This document shows positions 19,012 to 64,000 of a DNA stretch of 64,000 bases, piece after piece. A model generated the notes under the pieces. The model saw only the letters and a program-made list of their open reading frames with translations. It ran no database searches and was not told the origin of the DNA. Source of the DNA: a virus; the IMG/VR virus record IMGVR_UViG_3300037258_001185, positions 20,252-84,251 of that record. One strand, written 5' to 3'. The position numbers and the translations under genes are program-made. The number at the start of each line of letters is the position of its first letter. Position 1 is the stretch's first letter.

Positions 19012-19341
19012 ATGGACAACCTGTTCGAAGGTGAGCCGGACGCCCGGCAGACTGACGCGCCGGTGACGGCGCCGCAGCATTCGCTGTTCCGCAAGCGCTA
19101 CCGCAAGTTGACGGAACCCGAGGTCGCGCTGCAGGACGCCATCAAGGACAAGGCCGATGAGCTCGCGGTGCTGATCGGCCTCCTCAATCCGGCCACCGCC
19201 AATCGGCTCGGCGTCCATTCCGTGACGACCGGATGCTCGCTTGCGATTGAGCTGGGCGACCGCGATCCCGCGAACGTGACGCTGGCCATTCGCCACCTTG
19301 AGGACGCCGTCTATCGCGCCGTCAAAGCACTGACTGCATAG
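19012..19341 (+). CDS. Acb2/Tad1-like protein, candidate cyclic-nucleotide sponge
   Basis: 109 aa from ATG 19012 (GCGGAG upstream). RYRKLTEPEVALQDAIKDKA followed by DELAVLI, then a C-terminal LAIRHLEDAVYRAVKALTA, fits the helical hairpin of the Acb2/Tad1 family. Phage members of that family bind signalling nucleotides and block CBASS or Thoeris. An insertion of about 25 residues (ATANRLGVHSVTTGCSLAIE) separates the helices and is longer than in typical members. The assignment rests on motif memory only. It is the first gene of the block with the ECF sigma factor. Confidence 0.6.
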   Translation: MDNLFEGEPDARQTDAPVTAPQHSLFRKRYRKLTEPEVALQDAIKDKADELAVLIGLLNPATANRLGVHSVTTGCSLAIELGDRDPANVTLAIRHLEDAVYRAVKALTA

Positions 19342-30769: not shown

Positions 30770-32269
30770 ATGCCACCTGCCGGCGCTCCGCGGACAACGC
30801 TAACCGAACTGGTATCGACCGTCACGGGATACCAGCAGCGGGTCGTGTTCGGACAGAGCGGCGTCTTCTCGCCGGGCTCGCCGATCAGTCCCGTCGTCAA
30901 AGAGCCGGTCCGCGCGATCGACTTTCGGGTCGGCGAGAACACGTTCTGGACGCCTCGCTCCGGCGAGGCTTGGTCGTTCCAGCAATTGCGCAACCTGGTC
31001 GAGCCTGGCGGCTTTGACATTGCACGTCTCGCGATCGAGACCCGCAAGGACCAGCTTGAACGGCTCGACTACACAGTTCGGCCAATCGACACGAAGAAGC
31101 GCAAGGACAAAGACGCGCGCGCCATCGCGCTGACGAAGATGATCCGGCGCCCGGACGGCGTTCGGGATTTTGCCACCTGGACCCGCCTGCTGCTCGAAGA
31201 CCTGTTCGTCATCGACGCGCCGGCCGTCGAGGTGCGCCGCAACCGCGGCGGCAAGATCATCGGCTTTGACGTCGTCGACGGCGCGACCTTCAAGCTGCTG
31301 CTCGACGACACGGGCCGCACGCCCCAGCCGCCGGCGCCGGCCTACGAGCAGGTCATCAAGGGGCGCCCTTGGAACCTGCTGACGACCGACGACCTGATCT
31401 ACCGTCCGCGCAACCAGCGCCCGCACAAGATTTACGGCCTCAGCCCGGTCGAGCAGATCCTGACGACGATCCATATCGGACTGTCGCGCCAGCTCAGCCA
31501 GCTCAACTATTTCACCGACGGCACGACACCGCCCGGCTTCCTCAATGCGCCGGAGGGCTGGTCGCCCGATCAGGTGAAGGAATACTACGACAACCTGATG
31601 GCCGTGCTGTCCGGTAACCTCGATGCCCGCCGTCGCATCTGGATGGCGCCGCACGGTGCGACCTACCAGTCGATCAAGGATGCGCCGCTCAAGGACGAGT
31701 TCGACGAGTGGATCGCGCGCGTCGTCTGTTACGCCTTCTCGCTGCCGCCGACGGCCTTCATCAAGCAGCTCAACCGCTCGTCGTCGGAGACCTCCGACGA
31801 AACCTCGCAGGAAGAGGGGCTTGAGCCGCTGAAGGGCTGGGTCAAGCGCTGGTGGGACGAAGTCATCCAGTTGCGGATGGGCTATGACGACCTCGAATTC
31901 GCCTGGGTCGACGACAGGCCGATCGATCCGCAGGTACAGGCCACCATCGACAACCTGAACCTGCGCAACGGCCTGCTGTGCATTAACGACGTGCTGGATC
32001 ACCACGGCTTCGACCCCATCGCCAACGGCAACCGCCACCTGATCTACACCGCGAGCGGCGCGGTATTGCTCGACACGATCGTCGCCAGCGATGACCCGAG
32101 CAATCAATTGACGCCGCCGGCGCACCCCGGCGCGGTCGCCCATGATCCGGCGGCCGTCCTGCCCAATCCGACGGCCACGCCGCCGACCGACGGAGGCGCG
32201 AACGATGACTCCGAGGCGGCTGCACCTGATGGTAAGGGCCGAGGTACACCGGCCGCCGACCAACCTTGA
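30770..32269 (+). CDS. HK97-type portal protein
   Basis: 499 aa. LARLAIETRKDQLERLDYTV-like helical N-terminal wing, then LTTDDLIYRPRNQRPHKIYG, LSPVEQILTTIHIGLSRQLS and the C-terminal EEGLEPLKGWVKRWWDEVIQ are typical of dodecameric phage portals. The tail end is Pro/Ala/Asp-rich. GGGAGCGG upstream. It forms the ring through which DNA enters and to which connectors bind. Confidence 0.85.
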   Translation: MPPAGAPRTTLTELVSTVTGYQQRVVFGQSGVFSPGSPISPVVKEPVRAIDFRVGENTFWTPRSGEAWSFQQLRNLVEPGGFDIARLAIETRKDQLERLDYTVRPIDTKKRKDKDARAIALTKMIRRPDGVRDFATWTRLLLEDLFVIDAPAVEVRRNRGGKIIGFDVVDGATFKLLLDDTGRTPQPPAPAYEQVIKGRPWNLLTTDDLIYRPRNQRPHKIYGLSPVEQILTTIHIGLSRQLSQLNYFTDGTTPPGFLNAPEGWSPDQVKEYYDNLMAVLSGNLDARRRIWMAPHGATYQSIKDAPLKDEFDEWIARVVCYAFSLPPTAFIKQLNRSSSETSDETSQEEGLEPLKGWVKRWWDEVIQLRMGYDDLEFAWVDDRPIDPQVQATIDNLNLRNGLLCINDVLDHHGFDPIANGNRHLIYTASGAVLLDTIVASDDPSNQLTPPAHPGAVAHDPAAVLPNPTATPPTDGGANDDSEAAAPDGKGRGTPAADQP

Positions 32270-32603
32270 TGCGGCTAAGGCCTGGCTGCTCCGGCTGATT
32301 GACGCAGTCGGCATGACGCTGGCGACGGGCCCGGAGGCCAATCCGATCGCCTACTACTGCGACACGCCGGGCAACCGCGGCCTGACGGCCTCGGCGATCA
32401 TCGAAACCAGCAACATCACGCTGCACACCTGGGATGAGGCGAGCCCCGGCGAATTGCAGCTCGACCTGTTCACCTGCGGCGATCTCGATACCGAGACGGC
32501 GCTTGGCTTTCTCGACGAGTTCGGCCCCGAGAGGGTCGACCACCTGCTCATCAATCGCCGCGATGGCCTCGGGGTCGCGCGGCTTTGGAGTGACCGCCGA
32601 TGA
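32205..32603 (+). CDS. S-adenosylmethionine decarboxylase-like (SpeD) protein
   Basis: 132 aa from ATG 32205 (GGAGGCG upstream); ATG 32226 is an alternative. IAYYCDTPGNRGLTASAIIE, then TSNITLHTWDEA, and LQLDLFTCGDLDTETALGFL align by eye with bacterial SpeD. The pyruvoyl-forming Ser, the catalytic His of HTW and the Cys of FTCGD are all kept. The residue before the Ser is Thr instead of Glu, and the following His is Asn. Real SpeD self-cleaves to decarboxylate AdoMet; some homologues act on ornithine or arginine. Its place between portal and structural genes is unexpected. It overlaps the portal by 65 nt. Confidence 0.65.
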   Translation: MTPRRLHLMVRAEVHRPPTNLDAAKAWLLRLIDAVGMTLATGPEANPIAYYCDTPGNRGLTASAIIETSNITLHTWDEASPGELQLDLFTCGDLDTETALGFLDEFGPERVDHLLINRRDGLGVARLWSDRR

Positions 32604-59657: not shown

Positions 59658-59688
59658 CGCCCGGCCCTCCGGGGTCGGGCGTTTTTTT
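59658..59688 (+). terminator. Rho-independent terminator of the structural/lysis block
   Basis: A stem CGCCCGGCCC with GGGTCGGGCG around a 4-nt loop (59658-59681), followed by seven T. It closes the rightward late transcript. Confidence 0.9.
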
Positions 59689-60092: not shown

Positions 60093-60169
60093 GGGCCTGT
60101 AGCTCAATCGGGAGAGCACCTGCTTTGCACGCAGGAGGTCGGGGGTTCGATTCCGCCCCAGGTCCACCA
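60093..60169 (+). tRNA. tRNA-Ala(TGC)
   Basis: Cloverleaf with acceptor GGGCCTG/CAGGTCC, anticodon stem CCTGC/GCAGG and loop TTTGCAC; T-loop TTCGATT; CCA encoded. First gene of the array. Confidence 0.92.
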
Positions 60170-60200
60170 ACCATTTCGGTGACGTCACCGAAATGATCAT

Positions 60201-60275
60201 GCGGCAGTAGCTCAGAGGTAGAGCGTCACGTTGCCAACGTGGATGTCGGCGGTTCGATTCCGCTTTGCCGCTCCA
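60201..60275 (+). tRNA. tRNA-Gly(GCC)
   Basis: Acceptor GCGGCAG/TTGCCGC, anticodon loop TTGCCAA, T-loop TTCGATT, CCA encoded. Confidence 0.9.
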
Positions 60276-60281
60276 GTTTGA

Positions 60282-60356
60282 TGCCGTGTAGCTCAGTGGG
60301 AGAGCAGCGCCCTCATAAGGCGCTGGCCGGCGGTTCGATCCCGCCCACGGCTACCA
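60282..60356 (+). tRNA. tRNA-Met(CAT), 1-72 mismatch
   Basis: Anticodon loop CTCATAA with stem GCGCC/GGCGC. The acceptor TGCCGTG/CACGGCT leaves positions 1 and 72 unpaired (T-T), as in initiators, but the GGG/CCC anticodon-stem pairs of a bacterial initiator are absent. Initiator, elongator or lysidine-Ile2 identity is open. CCA encoded. Confidence 0.8.
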
Positions 60357-60362
60357 GTTTGA

Positions 60363-60436
60363 TGCGGGCAGGCCAAGCGGCCCTTCCGGTCTCATAAGCC
60401 GGAACCGTCCAGGGGCAGTACCTGGGCCCGCAACCA
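60363..60436 (+). tRNA. tRNA(CAT), second copy, with T-loop GGCAGTA
   Basis: Acceptor TGCGGGC/GCCCGCA fully paired; D-stem GGCC/GGCC; anticodon loop CTCATAA; CCA encoded. The T-loop reads GGCAGTA instead of TTCRANN. Met or Ile2 cannot be decided. Confidence 0.7.
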
Positions 60437-60510
60437 ATCGTGGCGTCGGCTTAGTGGCGCGAGCCTATGTCGAAGCCGCACGGCCCGGCGGCGAAATTCA
60501 CCGGGCACCA
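60437..60510 (+). other. CCA-ended sequence, no cloverleaf closed
   Basis: The stretch contains a D-arm-like GGCTTAGTGGCGCGAGCC and ends in GGGCACCA, but no acceptor stem or anticodon arm pairs properly. A degraded tRNA or non-standard RNA is possible. Confidence 0.25.
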
Positions 60511-60514
60511 ATTC

Positions 60515-60590
60515 GCCGGTCTAGCAAAGGTGGTCCTCGCGCGTCGTTGAAAGCGACGACATCTCCGTTCGATCCGGAGGGCCGGCACCA
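60515..60590 (+). tRNA. tRNA-Phe(GAA)
   Basis: Acceptor GCCGGTC/GGCCGGC, anticodon stem CGTCG/CGACG, loop TTGAAAG, T-loop TTCGATC, CCA encoded. The D-arm is weakly paired. Confidence 0.85.
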
Positions 60591-60593
60591 ATC

Positions 60594-60668
60594 GCGGGCG
60601 TAGCTCAGTGGTAGAGCCGGAGTTTTCCAAACTTCGGGTCGTCGGTTCGATTCCGACCGTCCGCTCCA
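60594..60668 (+). tRNA. tRNA-Gly(TCC)
   Basis: Acceptor GCGGGCG/CGTCCGC, anticodon loop TTTCCAA, T-loop TTCGATT, CCA encoded. Confidence 0.9.
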
Positions 60669-60676
60669 GTTCTTAT

Positions 60677-60753
60677 TCCCATCGGTCCCTGCTGGTAGGG
60701 GAGCGAGCCTGTTAAGCTCGTCGGTCGTGGTTCGAGTCCACGGATGGGAGCCA
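60677..60753 (+). tRNA. tRNA-Asn(GTT)
   Basis: Acceptor TCCCATC/GATGGGA, anticodon stem CGAGC/GCTCG, loop CTGTTAA, T-loop TTCGAGT, discriminator G, CCA encoded. Confidence 0.92.
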
Positions 60754-60756
60754 TTT

Positions 60757-60829
60757 GCGGGCGAGCAGCGGCCTGCCGGCGGGACTCCAAACCCCGGCTG
60801 AGGGAGTTCGACACTCTCCGCCCGTGCCA
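60757..60829 (+). tRNA. tRNA-Trp(CCA)
   Basis: Acceptor GCGGGCG/CGCCCGT, anticodon loop CTCCAAA with one A-C mismatch in the stem, T-loop TTCGACA, discriminator G, CCA encoded. Confidence 0.85.
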
Positions 60830-60833
60830 GTAC

Positions 60834-60908
60834 GCGTCGCATCCCAAACGGTGAGGGCCCGGCCTGCAAAACCGGAGATACGCGGTTCAATTCCGCGGCG
60901 ACGCTCCA
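60834..60908 (+). tRNA. tRNA-Cys(GCA)
   Basis: Acceptor GCGTCGC/GCGACGC, anticodon loop CTGCAAA, T-loop TTCAATT, discriminator T, CCA encoded. Confidence 0.88.
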
Positions 60909-60910
60909 GT

Positions 60911-61022
60911 TCGCGCAGCGGCGTGGAGAACACGCATCATCGCATCGGGTGCCTGGGTCGGATGCACCGGCCTCTACGGAGACGGGCGGAAACAGGAAGC
61001 CGGCTTTGGCCGGCCTGCGCGA
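60911..61022 (+). other. Structured spacer between tRNA-Cys and tRNA-His
   Basis: An outer perfect 8-bp stem TCGCGCAG (60911-60918) with CTGCGCGA (61015-61022) encloses GCGTG/CACGC, GGTGC/GCACC and GCCGGC/GCCGGC hairpins. Too long and lacking an anticodon arm for a tRNA; an unknown small RNA or processing element is possible. Confidence 0.35.
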
Positions 61023-61030
61023 TACTCTAT

Positions 61031-61107
61031 GGTGACGTGAGGGAGCAGGCGAACCCGGCCGGCTGTGAACCGGCCTTCGAGCGGATCGATACCGCTACGT
61101 CACCCCA
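61031..61107 (+). tRNA. tRNA-His(GTG)
   Basis: Acceptor GTGACGT/ACGTCAC with encoded extra G at -1 (61031) facing C73, the His identity pair. Anticodon stem GCCGG/CCGGC, loop CTGTGAA, CCA encoded. Confidence 0.88.
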
Positions 61108-61108
61108 T

Positions 61109-61184
61109 GCCGGCGTAGCTCAGCGGTAGAGCAATCGCCTTGTAAGCGATCGGTCGCGGGTTCGATCCCTCGCCGCCGGCTCCA
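61109..61184 (+). tRNA. tRNA-Thr(TGT)
   Basis: Acceptor GCCGGCG/CGCCGGC, anticodon stem ATCGC/GCGAT, loop CTTGTAA, T-loop TTCGATC, CCA encoded. Confidence 0.92.
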
Positions 61185-61191
61185 GTTTTTT

Positions 61192-61267
61192 GGCGCGTTC
61201 GAGGACAGCTTCCTCCGCCCGGCTCTGACCCGGGTAGCACACCGGGCAGCATGGTGGCGCGCTTCCA
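61192..61267 (+). tRNA. tRNA-Gln(CTG) with T-loop GGCAGCA
   Basis: Acceptor GGCGCGT/GCGCGCT, anticodon stem CCCGG/CCGGG with loop CTCTGAC, T-stem CACCG/TGGTG, CCA encoded. The T-loop is GGCAGCA, not TTCRANN. Confidence 0.7.
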
Positions 61268-61270
61268 TTC

Positions 61271-61342
61271 GGCCCGTGGCCCAGGTGGGTAACGCGGCCC
61301 TTGAAGCCGCACGGCTTGGTTCGACACCGAGGCGGGCTCCCA
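61271..61342 (+). tRNA. tRNA-Gln(TTG), C33
   Basis: Acceptor GGCCCGT/GCGGGCT, anticodon stem GCGGC/GCCGC with loop CCTTGAA (C33 instead of T33), T-loop TTCGACA, CCA encoded. Identity is inferred from the loop frame. Confidence 0.7.
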
Positions 61343-61345
61343 TCT

Positions 61346-61421
61346 CGCCCGTTCGTCTAGCAGTTCTGGACACCCGCCCCTCAAGCGGGAGGTAAGGGGG
61401 CAGCACCCTTACGGGCGGCCA
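61346..61421 (+). tRNA. tRNA-Glu(CTC), C33, T-loop GGCAGCA
   Basis: Acceptor CGCCCGT/ACGGGCG, Glu-like D-arm (GTCTAGCAGTTCTGGAC), anticodon stem CCCGC/GCGGG with loop CCCTCAA (C33), T-stem AAGGG/CCCTT with loop GGCAGCA, CCA encoded. Confidence 0.7.
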
Positions 61422-61425
61422 ATCC

Positions 61426-61512
61426 GAGAGCGTGGCCTTGTAGGGAATCCTGGCACACCTTGCGCGTTCAGACCGCGTGGCTTTGCGAGTTCGAGTCTCG
61501 CCGCTCTCACCA
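61426..61512 (+). tRNA. tRNA-Leu(CAG)
   Basis: Acceptor GAGAGCG/CGCTCTC, anticodon loop TTCAGAC on stem GCGCG/CGCGT, T-loop TTCGAGT, CCA encoded. The D-region is longer than usual. Confidence 0.8.
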
Positions 61513-61516
61513 ATTC

Positions 61517-61605
61517 GGATGGTCAACCGGCCGCCCGGCCGGCCCCGGTTGGAAACCGGGCGGCACCCGCAAGGGCGTGCGGATCGAGACCGCGGCCATC
61601 CTCCA
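61517..61605 (+). tRNA. tRNA-Ser(GGA)
   Basis: Acceptor GGATGGT/GCCATCC, anticodon stem CCCGG/CCGGG, loop TTGGAAA, long variable arm (CACCCGCAAGGGCGTG), CCA encoded. Confidence 0.85.
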
Positions 61606-61610
61606 CAAAT

Positions 61611-61700
61611 GGGTGGTCAACCGGACAAGCGCGCCGGCTCGGCTTCGAAGCCCGGAGGCGCCCGCAAGGGCGTGGGGAGCATGCCCTCGGCCACCCGCCA
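61611..61700 (+). tRNA. tRNA-Ser(CGA)
   Basis: Acceptor GGGTGGT/GCCACCC, anticodon loop TTCGAAG, long variable arm (CGCCCGCAAGGGCG), discriminator G, CCA encoded. One mismatch closes the anticodon stem. Confidence 0.85.
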
Positions 61701-61706
61701 GACAAC

Positions 61707-61794
61707 GGAGAGCGAAGTGGACAAGCGCGCCACGGCCGGCCTGAACCCGGCGCGAGCCGCAAGGCTTGGAAGGCAGGATCTCCGCTCTCCGCCA
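61707..61794 (+). tRNA. tRNA-Ser(TGA), C33
   Basis: Acceptor GGAGAGC/GCTCTCC, anticodon stem GCCGG/CCGGC with loop CCTGAAC (C33), long variable arm (GAGCCGCAAGGCTT), discriminator G, CCA encoded. Confidence 0.8.
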
Positions 61795-61861
61795 GCTCGA
61801 GCATTGCGACGGCTCGGCCACCAGGTCGTGCCGAGCGGCAAGCGCTATTCGCGCAAGGGAA

Positions 61862-61952
61862 GGGTGGCACAAGCGGAAGGCGTACCGCGGCGGGTTGCTA
61901 ACCCGATCGTGCCTTTTGCAGGCATTCGGTTCAAATCCGAGGCCGCCCGCCA
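61862..61952 (+). tRNA. tRNA-Ser(GCT)
   Basis: Acceptor GGGTGGC/GCCGCCC, anticodon loop TTGCTAA, long variable arm (TGCCTTTTGCAGGCA), T-loop TTCAAAT, CCA encoded. Confidence 0.87.
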
Positions 61953-61953
61953 C

Positions 61954-62028
61954 GCTGGCGTAGCTCAGTGGCAGAGCACCTCATTGGTAATGAGGTGGCC
62001 GTCGGTTCGATCCCGACCGTCAGCACCA
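61954..62028 (+). tRNA. tRNA-Thr(GGT)
   Basis: Acceptor GCTGGCG/CGTCAGC, anticodon stem CCTCA/TGAGG, loop TTGGTAA, T-loop TTCGATC, CCA encoded. Highly similar to the last gene of the array, tRNA-Thr(CGT). Confidence 0.92.
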
Positions 62029-62033
62029 GTTTC

Positions 62034-62121
62034 GGGGAAGTGTCACCGGCGGGACGCCGGACGCGGGCTGTAAACCCGTCGCCCTTCGGGGCGCGCTGTT
62101 CGACTCAGCCTTTCCCCACCA
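62034..62121 (+). tRNA. tRNA-Tyr(GTA)
   Basis: Acceptor GGGGAAG/TTTCCCC, anticodon loop CTGTAAA, long variable arm (CGCCCTTCGGGGCG), T-loop TTCGACT, CCA encoded; a bacterial class II Tyr tRNA. Confidence 0.9.
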
Positions 62122-62122
62122 C

Positions 62123-62198
62123 GCTCCTGTAGCTCAATGGCAGAGCAGGCGGTCGATAACCGCCCGACGATGAGGTTCGATTCCTCCCGGGAGTACCA
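62123..62198 (+). tRNA. tRNA-Ile(GAT), C33
   Basis: Acceptor GCTCCTG/CGGGAGT, anticodon stem GGCGG/CCGCC with loop TCGATAA (C33), T-loop TTCGATT, CCA encoded. Confidence 0.82.
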
Positions 62199-62202
62199 GT
62201 TT

Positions 62203-62277
62203 GGGGGCGTAACTCAGCGGCAGAGTAGCGGCCTCTTAAGCCGTCACGCGTGGGTTCGAGTCCCACCGCCCCCACCA
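62203..62277 (+). tRNA. tRNA-Lys(CTT)
   Basis: Acceptor GGGGGCG/CGCCCCC, anticodon stem GCGGC/GCCGT, loop CTCTTAA, T-loop TTCGAGT, CCA encoded. Confidence 0.9.
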
Positions 62278-62338
62278 GTTCGCGCGCTCGACGGGGCGCG
62301 CGCCGCGGCATAGGTCCAATGGCGGCCGCGGCACCTTT

Positions 62339-62413
62339 GCGCACGTCGCACTCTGGGAGTGCCGCCGGCTGTCTACCGGCCGCAGGCGGGTTCGATTCCC
62401 GTCGTGCGCGCCA
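62339..62413 (+). tRNA. tRNA-Asp(GTC)
   Basis: Acceptor GCGCACG/CGTGCGC, anticodon stem GCCGG/CCGGC, loop CTGTCTA, T-loop TTCGATT, discriminator G, CCA encoded. Confidence 0.88.
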
Positions 62414-62417
62414 TTCG

Positions 62418-62492
62418 GCCGGCGTGGCGACAGGAGCGCCACCGAGAATCCTAGTCTCGGCTCTCCCGGTTCGAGTCCGGGCGTCGGCTCCA
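62418..62492 (+). tRNA. tRNA-Arg(CCT)
   Basis: Acceptor GCCGGCG/CGTCGGC, anticodon stem CGAGA/TCTCG, loop ATCCTAG, T-loop TTCGAGT, CCA encoded. Confidence 0.87.
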
Positions 62493-62493
62493 G

Positions 62494-62568
62494 CGGAGCG
62501 TAGCGCAGCGGTAGCGCGCCTGCTTTGGGAGCAGGACGTCGTCGGTTCGATCCCGACCGCTCCGACCA
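62494..62568 (+). tRNA. tRNA-Pro(TGG)
   Basis: Acceptor CGGAGCG/CGCTCCG, anticodon stem CCTGC/GCAGG, loop TTTGGGA, T-loop TTCGATC, CCA encoded. Confidence 0.92.
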
Positions 62569-62575
62569 GATTTAA

Positions 62576-62643
62576 CGGAGGGTAGCCCAGCGGCTAAGGC
62601 GCCTCGTTCGGGGCGAGGAGATCGAATCCCTTCCTTCCGCCCA
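62576..62643 (+). tRNA. tRNA-Pro(CGG), short
   Basis: Acceptor CGGAGGG/CCTTCCG, anticodon stem CCTCG/CGAGG, loop TTCGGGG, CCA encoded. The whole gene is about 68 nt; the variable region and T-arm are short and badly paired, so function is uncertain. Confidence 0.65.
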
Positions 62644-62649
62644 TTTTGT

Positions 62650-62722
62650 GCCCGGCTCGCCAAGCGGCAAAGGCATCGCGTTTACACCGCGACATTCGGG
62701 GGTTCGAGTCCCTCGCCGGGTA
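62650..62722 (+). tRNA. tRNA-Val(TAC), CCA not encoded
   Basis: Acceptor GCCCGGC/GCCGGGT, D-stem GCC/GGC, anticodon stem TCGCG/CGCGA, loop TTTACAC, T-loop TTCGAGT. It is followed by CGG rather than CCA; the next tRNA starts two bases after its end. Confidence 0.8.
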
Positions 62723-62723
62723 C

Positions 62724-62798
62724 GGGCGCGTAGCTCAGTGGCAGAGCGCCTGCTCGACATGCAGGAGGCGGCCGGTTCGATTCCAGCCGCGCCCACCA
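62724..62798 (+). tRNA. tRNA-Val(GAC), C33
   Basis: Acceptor GGGCGCG/CGCGCCC, anticodon stem CCTGC/GCAGG with loop TCGACAT (C33), T-loop TTCGATT, CCA encoded. Confidence 0.82.
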
Positions 62799-62801
62799 TT
62801 T

Positions 62802-62877
62802 CGCCCGGTCGTCTACAGGATAGGATTTCTGGCCTTTCAAGCCGGGGACACGGGTTCGAATCCCGTTCGGGCGCCCA
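62802..62877 (+). tRNA. tRNA-Glu(TTC)
   Basis: Acceptor CGCCCGG/TCGGGCG, Glu-like D-arm (GTCTACAGGATAGGAT), anticodon stem CTGGC/GCCGG, loop CTTTCAA, T-loop TTCGAAT, CCA encoded. Confidence 0.88.
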
Positions 62878-62883
62878 AACACT

Positions 62884-62957
62884 GCCCTCGCCGGCGGAAA
62901 CCGGCGGCAGGCCTACGAAGCCAGCTCGCGGGGGTTCGACTCCTCCCGGGGGCGCCA
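62884..62957 (+). tRNA. tRNA-Arg(ACG)
   Basis: Acceptor GCCCTCG/CGGGGGC, anticodon loop CTACGAA on a stem with one mismatch, T-loop TTCGACT, CCA encoded. Confidence 0.82.
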
Positions 62958-62963
62958 ATCACC

Positions 62964-63036
62964 GGCCTCTGCGCTGGGACGCGGGCGGGCCTTCTAAGCC
63001 TGCCGCCGCTCGGTTCGATCCCGAGAGAGGTCGCCA
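62964..63036 (+). tRNA. tRNA-Arg(TCT)
   Basis: Acceptor GGCCTCT/AGAGGTC, anticodon stem CGGGC/GCCTG, loop CTTCTAA, T-loop TTCGATC, CCA encoded. Confidence 0.85.
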
Positions 63037-63040
63037 TCAT

Positions 63041-63113
63041 GCGCTCGCCGGCGGATCCGGCGCCGCGGCTCCGAACCGCGGACGCGAAGGTTCGACTCCT
63101 TTCGGGCGCGCCA
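63041..63113 (+). tRNA. tRNA-Arg(CCG)
   Basis: Acceptor GCGCTCG/CGGGCGC, anticodon stem CGCGG/CCGCG, loop CTCCGAA, T-loop TTCGACT, CCA encoded. Confidence 0.87.
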
Positions 63114-63117
63114 ACAC

Positions 63118-63201
63118 GCGGCGGTGGCTGGAATTGGTAGACACGTCGGTCCCAAAAACCGATCCGCAAGGGTGAGGGTTCGAGTCCCTCCCGCCGCACC
63201 A
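63118..63201 (+). tRNA. tRNA-Leu(CAA), C33
   Basis: Acceptor GCGGCGG/CCGCCGC, anticodon stem TCGGT/ACCGA with loop CCCAAAA (C33), variable arm TCCGCAAGGGTGA, T-loop TTCGAGT, CCA encoded. Confidence 0.85.
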
Positions 63202-63206
63202 TCAAC

Positions 63207-63279
63207 GCCGCCGTGAACGGATTTCCGTGTCCGCCTTTTAAGCGGAAGCAAGCAGGTGAGAATCCTGTCGGCGGCACCA
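63207..63279 (+). tRNA. tRNA-Lys(TTT) with T-loop TGAGAAT
   Basis: Acceptor GCCGCCG/CGGCGGC, anticodon stem TCCGC/GCGGA, loop CTTTTAA, CCA encoded. T-stem GCAGG/CCTGT carries the loop TGAGAAT. Confidence 0.78.
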
Positions 63280-63281
63280 AT

Positions 63282-63356
63282 GCTGGCGTAGCTCAGTCGC
63301 AGAGCAGCCGCCTCGTAAGCGGCAGGTCGTCGGTTCAAGTCCGACCGTCAGCTCCA
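63282..63356 (+). tRNA. tRNA-Thr(CGT)
   Basis: Acceptor GCTGGCG/CGTCAGC, anticodon stem GCCGC/GCGGC, loop CTCGTAA, T-loop TTCAAGT, CCA encoded. Last gene of the array. Confidence 0.92.
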
Positions 63357-63373: not shown

Positions 63374-64000
63374 ATGCTCGCTGTCGCTGCTGATCGGCCT
63401 CAGGCCGAGCGAAGGCCGCTGCGCGGCCTCAGAACCCTTGTGCTCAACGCCGACTTCCGGCCCCTCAGCGCCTGGCCGCTGAGCCTGATGCCGGCGCAAG
63501 AGGCGGTGCACGCGCTGCTGCGCGATCGCGTCGCCGCCGTCGAGAACTGGCCGGATGCCTTCTATCGCTCGCCGTCGATGTCGATCGCGGTCCCCAAGGT
63601 CGTCGCGCTGCGCGAATACGCGCCCGTTCGCGGCGAGCCCAAGTGCACCCGGATCAACATCTACCTGCGCGACCGCTTCCGTTGCCAGTATTGCGGCGAG
63701 CGGTTCGAGCGCAGCGAGTTGACCTACGATCACGTCATCCCGCGCGCCAAGGGCGGCAAGACCGTGTGGACGAACATCCTGACGGCATGCGTCGGCTGCA
63801 ACGGCCGCAAGCGCGACCAGTTGCCGAACTTCTCCGGCCGCAAGGGCGTCGCCGGCCGGGACGGCTCGCTGCGGCCGCTCAAGGAGCCGCGGCGCCCAAC
63901 CGGCGCCGAGCTGGCGCGCGCCGGGCTGGAACTGCTGCCGGATGACGTGATTGCGGATTATGGTTCTTGGCTATATTGGCATACCGAGTTGAAGCAGTGA
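63374..64000 (+). CDS. HNH endonuclease flanking the tRNA array
   Basis: 208 aa. LRTLVLNADFRPLSAWPLSL opens the family of RRXRR/HNH-type proteins; RDRFRCQYCGERFERSELTY, then DHVIPRAKGGKTVWTNILTA and CVGCNGRKRDQ form the HNH core (residues about 98-148) with two CxxC pairs. It is complete, ending at the window edge. The gene lies 17 nt behind the last tRNA. Related proteins are widespread in bacterial genomes, so domestication or a homing role are both possible. Confidence 0.85.
   Translation: MLAVAADRPQAERRPLRGLRTLVLNADFRPLSAWPLSLMPAQEAVHALLRDRVAAVENWPDAFYRSPSMSIAVPKVVALREYAPVRGEPKCTRINIYLRDRFRCQYCGERFERSELTYDHVIPRAKGGKTVWTNILTACVGCNGRKRDQLPNFSGRKGVAGRDGSLRPLKEPRRPTGAELARAGLELLPDDVIADYGSWLYWHTELKQ

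What the first reader, a model, noticed from the sequence alone, without database searches (positions are those of the whole stretch)
60093..63356. A 36-gene tRNA array covering all 20 amino acids
Thirty-six cloverleaves lie on one strand within 3.3 kb, nearly all with encoded CCA. Reading anticodons gives Ala, Arg x4, Asn, Asp, Cys, Gln x2, Glu x2, Gly x2, His, Ile, Leu x2, Lys x2, CAT x2, Phe, Pro x2, Ser x4, Thr x3, Trp, Tyr and Val x2: every amino acid. Such sets are known mostly from phages with much larger genomes. A near-complete set suggests translation independent of host tRNAs, for example after host tRNA cleavage by defence nucleases.
Basis: partly seen in the sequence, partly recalled or inferred. 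Interest (0 to 1): 0.85.

Follow-up and report, generated by a model that had tools for sequence, protein, structure and literature searches.

The report
Phage tRNA array with rewritten elbows
A bacterial virus carries a packed row of 36 tRNA genes (35 intact) covering all 20 amino acids, and many of them, like those of its relatives, have replaced the almost universal tRNA contacts with matching substitutes, so they look like working tRNAs in disguise, perhaps to escape bacterial defences that destroy tRNAs.

Summary
At 60093-63356 of an 84-kb IMG/VR phage record, 36 tRNA genes lie on one strand: 35 intact cloverleaves plus Pro-CGG, which lacks half its T-arm. All 20 amino acids are covered and 35 encode CCA. 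ARAGORN defaults find 24; a relaxed cloverleaf scan finds 31, with none in 20 shuffles. The set reads about 96% of phage codons under generous wobble (Leu CUC/CUU/CUA/UUA are not read), so 'independent of host tRNAs' overstates it. An HNH endonuclease gene follows the array, and the same tRNA order plus HNH recurs on about 15 other viral contigs, mostly on unrelated phage backbones. This is a tRNA array unit, a known kind.

What I could not find described is the state of the tRNAs. Positions nearly invariant in cells are changed in compensated ways: G18-U55 to A18-G55, G19-C56 to A19-U56 or U19-A56, U54-A58 to G-G or A-U. Of 115 array tRNAs with altered 55/56, 109 hold the predicted D-loop partner (permutation maximum 59-73). 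All 57 chromosomal control tRNAs were canonical. These tRNAs are therefore selected to fold, not decaying. Most likely they are a functional replacement set that resists host tRNA-inactivating defences; that last step is inferred.

The parts
60093..63356 (+). tRNA array: 35 intact tRNA genes plus 1 truncated (Pro-CGG), all 20 amino acids
60363..60436 (+). tRNA CAT(b): four-base D-loop AAGC, T-loop GGCAGTA
61192..61267 (+). tRNA-Gln-CTG: D-loop without GG, T-loop GGCAGCA (G54 G55 C56 A57 G58)
61346..61421 (+). tRNA-Glu-CTC: T-loop GGCAGCA and C33 in place of U33
61611..61700 (+). tRNA-Ser-CGA: T-loop AGCATGC (G55) with AG, not GG, in the D-loop
61707..61794 (+). tRNA-Ser-TGA: acceptor 7/7, T stem only 3/5, T-loop GGCAGGA, C33
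   Evidence: sequence
63207..63279 (+). tRNA-Lys-TTT: D-loop cut to about 4 nt and T-loop TGAGAAT
62576..62645 (+). tRNA-Pro-CGG remnant: variable loop and 5' T stem missing
   Evidence: sequence
60440..60510 (+). relic in the slot of a third CAT tRNA; no clear anticodon arm
   Evidence: sequence; slot filled by a CAT tRNA in L032 and L043
63374..64000 (+). HNH endonuclease (208 aa) directly downstream; stop codon is the last codon of the record
   Evidence: PF14279/PF01844; 56-64% identical to HNHs next to syntenic arrays
59658..59681 (+). terminator-like hairpin between the structural genes and the array
   Evidence: one site found; shuffles give a mean of 3.7, so position is the only support

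Best explanation
This is a phage-borne tRNA array unit with its HNH companion. During infection it would supply processed tRNAs for all 20 amino acids, reading about 96% of the phage's own codons. The tRNAs still fold and work, but generic recognition surfaces shared by host tRNAs (the D-loop/T-loop elbow, U33, the 8-14 and 15-48 core contacts) have been exchanged for compensated alternatives, so that host nucleases or other tRNA-inactivating defences that read those surfaces would not destroy them. Shown: the array, its conserved order next to an HNH gene, and the compensatory tertiary changes. Inferred: transcription, processing, charging, resistance to defence, and the reason for the exchange.
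For: All 20 amino acids and 57 of 61 sense codons, under generous wobble. Same order plus HNH on about 15 viral contigs, mostly with unrelated terminases. Compensated contacts: 109/115 against permutation maxima of 59-73; 54-58 G-G seen 45 times against 2.8 expected; 8-14 and 15-48 also co-vary. Controls canonical: 57/57 chromosomal, XacN1. T5 tRNA-Ile carries an A19-U56 elbow and its record says an anticodon-changed version acts as amber suppressor. PARIS/AriB: a set of T5 tRNA variants is needed for rescue, and tRNA features distal to the cleavage site matter, with D-loop contacts suggested (PMC12409363). C1 mycobacteriophage anticodon-loop changes (PMC10264068). An Acb2/Tad1-type protein gene on the same phage.
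Against: No expression data. The host is unknown, so host-versus-phage tRNAs could not be compared. The changes are spread over the whole tertiary core and many isoacceptors rather than one cleavage site, which compensated drift would also give. One tRNA is broken and one slot is a relic. About 23 of the 35 intact tRNAs of the window keep a canonical T-loop and U33.
Confidence: 0.57

Rival explanations
1. The tRNAs are functional but under relaxed constraint. Phage tRNAs skip some host maturation and regulation, so the elbow drifts through compensated pairs with no selection for evasion; the array serves general translation supply after host shutdown.
For: U8, A14, U33 and the elbow all vary, over many isoacceptors; a broken Pro-CGG and a relic are present.
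Against: Such drift is absent from the XacN1 tRNAs sampled and nearly so in T5; the T-loop family GGCRGYA arises again in many isoacceptors on different contigs.
Confidence: 0.23
2. Codon compensation: the phage carries tRNAs for codons its host reads poorly.
For: Two tRNAs each for Lys and Gln, and Arg-TCT, supply rare codons (anticodons; codon use).
Against: Phage GC3 is 84% and the array serves the commonest codons as well as rare ones. The unread Leu codon CUC is common (2.9%).
Confidence: 0.1
3. The array is mainly a homing or recombination island: the HNH spreads it, and the T-arm (GGTTCGANTCC) is diversified to avoid recombination among 36 copies or attack by the HNH or tRNA-targeting integrases.
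For: An HNH is always next to the syntenic arrays used here (they were found through it), in mycobacterial arrays too, and a TnpB lies by the HNH in L005. Backbones differ.
Against: It does not explain why D-loop partners change with the T-loop unless function is kept; most T-loops remain canonical.
Confidence: 0.08
4. A decaying cluster of tRNA pseudogenes.
For: Pro-CGG truncated; relic at 60440-60510; low Rfam scores.
Against: Near-perfect stems, encoded CCA and compensated tertiary pairs in 109/115 variants.
Confidence: 0.02

Closest known systems
tRNA array units of mycobacterial plasmids, prophages and phages (PMC5966550, PMC12803027)
   Same: More than 20 tRNAs at >2 per kb, 19-20 amino acids, adjacent HNH, redundant with host sets, structurally divergent tRNAs noted in M. 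avium
   Different: Presumed alphaproteobacterial phage, different order, denser (36 in 3.3 kb); compensated elbow changes not described there
T5 tRNA cluster and PARIS resistance (PMC12409363)
   Same: Phage tRNA set with sequence changes relative to host; HNH genes in the cluster; one T5 tRNA has an A19-U56 elbow
   Different: T5 resistance is mapped to the anticodon stem of tRNA-Lys plus unmapped distal features; here the changes are in the elbow and U33
C1 mycobacteriophage tRNAs with anticodon-loop mutations (PMC10264068)
   Same: About 33-36 tRNAs per phage, proposed escape from tRNA nucleases
   Different: Genomes about 155 kb; that work considers anticodon loops, not the elbow
Elbow-variant tRNAs: tRNA-Pyl, mitochondrial type II tRNAs (PMC7609411); engineered suppressors with altered D/T loops (Steinberg laboratory, from memory, not read here)
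   Same: Lack the G18 G19 / TPsiC sequences
   Different: Here the contacts are substituted and kept, in a set covering many isoacceptors

Membership tests
tRNA array unit | at least 20 tRNA genes at 2 or more per kb | tested here: met
   24 by ARAGORN defaults in 3.26 kb; 36 in all
tRNA array unit | nearly all amino acid isotypes | tested here: met
   all 20
tRNA array unit | associated HNH endonuclease (common, not obligatory) | tested here: met
   63374-64000
tRNA array unit | conserved isotype order in related mobile elements | tested here: met
Nuclease-evading phage tRNAs | changes at nuclease sites relative to the host tRNAs | tested here: inconclusive
   host unknown; C33 and elbow changes absent from 57 alphaproteobacterial chromosomal tRNAs
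Nuclease-evading phage tRNAs | rescue of infection under a tRNA-cleaving defence | not testable with these tools
   needs infection experiments
Elbow-less tRNAs (mitochondrial type II, tRNA-Pyl) | 18-55 and 19-56 contacts lost without replacement | tested here: not met
   predicted partners kept in 109/115 variant array tRNAs; Lys-TTT and short-D-loop tRNAs could be exceptions
tRNA pseudogene cluster | broken stems, no compensation | tested here: not met
   35 of 36 intact

The most novel reading that the evidence does not exclude
Phages defeat defences that act on tRNAs in general by carrying complete tRNA sets in which the universal recognition features themselves (G18-Psi55, G19-C56, U54-A58, U33) are recoded through compensatory pairs, leaving fully functional tRNAs without target uridines for TruB (position 55) or TrmA (position 54).
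Probability: 0.33. Interest if true: 0.86.

Novelty: new variant of a known kind. Interest (0 to 1): 0.63.

Why it matters
The M. avium study says it is undetermined whether divergent array tRNAs still function (PMC12803027). Natural covariation at 18-55, 19-56 and 54-58 argues that they are selected to fold, and shows these near-invariant contacts being exchanged, which makes the elbow's role in translation and in defence recognition directly testable. It also means default tRNA finders undercount phage tRNAs: 24 of 36 here.

Tried and rejected
HNH as an array marker in plasmids and chromosomes: most alphaproteobacterial relatives are an ordinary chromosomal-type HNH, some next to gluQRS, with no tRNAs nearby, although Acidiphilium and Mycolicibacterium plasmid hits do carry arrays. 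Those two plasmid arrays show few elbow variants, so the phenomenon is not general to all arrays. Host by capsid search: nearest named phages infect Brevundimonas at 37% identity; no match in three alphaproteobacterial genomes. An apparent C33 in 6 chromosomal controls was a register error; with the right register all have U33. Sigma-70 promoter scan: nothing. Accession AY129337 is not held. Thermodynamic folding does not separate intact from odd tRNAs.

Full report
The record is an 84,251-base IMG/VR virus contig and the window is its bases 20252-84251. It is a tailed phage: large terminase, portal, head protease, a capsid protein 37% identical to that of Brevundimonas phages, Rcc01698-type tail protein, a tyrosine integrase and a PhyR-type sigma factor. 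A GapR-like protein and the nearest relatives suggest an alphaproteobacterial host; this is inference.

The array. ARAGORN gives 24 tRNAs by default and 28 at 95% threshold. A scanner that asks only for stems, spacing and CCA gives 31, against none at score >=36 in 20 shuffles. All 20 amino acids are present. Under generous wobble, 57 of 61 sense codons are read; Leu CUC, CUU, CUA and UUA (3.6% of codons) are not. Pfam scans of most predicted proteins showed no aminoacyl-tRNA synthetase, RNA ligase or peptidyl-tRNA hydrolase.

Relatives. The HNH gene right after the array led to about 15 viral contigs with the same tRNA order followed by a homologous HNH (type A: L030-L044) and ten with another order around the HNH (type B: L190-L199). 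Most of these contigs lack detectable relatives of this phage's terminase or tail protein, so the array-HNH module probably moves between phages; fragmentary contigs limit this.

The unusual part. T-loops such as GGCAGCA, GGCGGTA, TGCRAYT and TTTGATT recur in different isoacceptors. They co-vary with the D-loop. Over 671 array tRNAs with a readable D-loop, 115 have a changed base at 55 or 56; 109 of these contain the dinucleotide predicted to pair (A-G for G55 C56, G-A for U55 U56, G-U for U55 A56). Shuffling T-loops among all tRNAs, within anticodons, or within contigs gives at most 59, 65 and 73 in 2000 trials. A GG dinucleotide is present in only 24 of the 115. Position 54 co-varies with 58 (U-A 655, G-G 45, A-A 19, A-U 15, C-A 9; 2.8 G-G expected). 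The Asp slot alone shows GG/TTC, GT/TTA, GA/TTT and AG/GGC in different type A phages. Pairs 8-14 (U-A to G-G) and 15-48 (to C-G) also change together. C33 replaces U33 in 15.6% of type A tRNAs; in the window in Gln-TTG, Glu-CTC, Leu-CAA, Ile-GAT, Val-GAC and Ser-TGA. Controls: 57 distinct chromosomal tRNAs from Caulobacter, Azospirillum and Gluconobacter all have GG, TTC-R-A and U33; the 28 XacN1 tRNAs sampled have canonical T-loops; T5 has one A19-U56 tRNA; mycobacteriophage Rey has three variants. Limits: D-loop positions 18 and 19 are inferred from dinucleotide presence, array tRNAs are related by descent, and the chromosomal control is small.

Reading. Compensation at several tertiary pairs, repeated within the same slot in different phages, is what selection for a working L-shaped tRNA predicts, and decay does not. 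Why the contacts change is open. Escape from tRNA-inactivating defence fits the published proposal for phage tRNAs (PMC10264068) and the PARIS work, where a set of T5 tRNAs is needed and contacts beyond the cleavage site are indicated (PMC12409363). Compensated drift under relaxed constraint is the main rival. My literature searches found no report of this covariation in phage tRNAs, but the library lacks most subscription papers.

Verdict. The array belongs to the tRNA array unit kind. The compensated elbow rewriting is, as far as I could find, undescribed and is the reason for interest.

Noticed in passing
window 60172-60195: Perfect 24-bp palindrome CATTTCGGTGACGTCACCGAAATG between tRNA-Ala and tRNA-Gly; possible operator or processing site.
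   Followed up: no
L032:6408-6482 and L035:6291-6364: tRNAs with anticodon CTA (amber suppressor type) just after Thr-CGT in two type A arrays; the L035 one has T-loop GGCGGCA.
   Followed up: no
L005:4729-5952: TnpB-like RNA-guided nuclease gene beside the HNH of a type A array; a TnpB also lies near the array of Mycolicibacterium plasmid pTY66 (L028).
   Followed up: no
window 19012-19341: Small protein with an Acb2/Tad1 hairpin domain (cyclic-nucleotide sponge type anti-defence).
   Followed up: partly
window 32229-32603: S-adenosylmethionine decarboxylase-like protein among the head genes.
   Followed up: no
L030:3846-3940, L005:1579-1676, L009:4269-4364: Ile-TAT tRNAs of 95-98 nt in the slot where the window has CAT(a); suggests CAT(a) may be an Ile tRNA (lysidine type).
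   Followed up: no
L261 (phage T5), tRNA-Ile GAU: T-loop TTTAAAT with GA in the D-loop: an A19-U56 elbow in a tRNA whose record reports suppressor activity after anticodon change.
   Followed up: partly
L190-L199: A second array order (Thr-Thr-Thr-Leu...Met-HNH-Arg...) on 46-132 kb contigs, several from isolate genomes by their IMG ids.
   Followed up: partly
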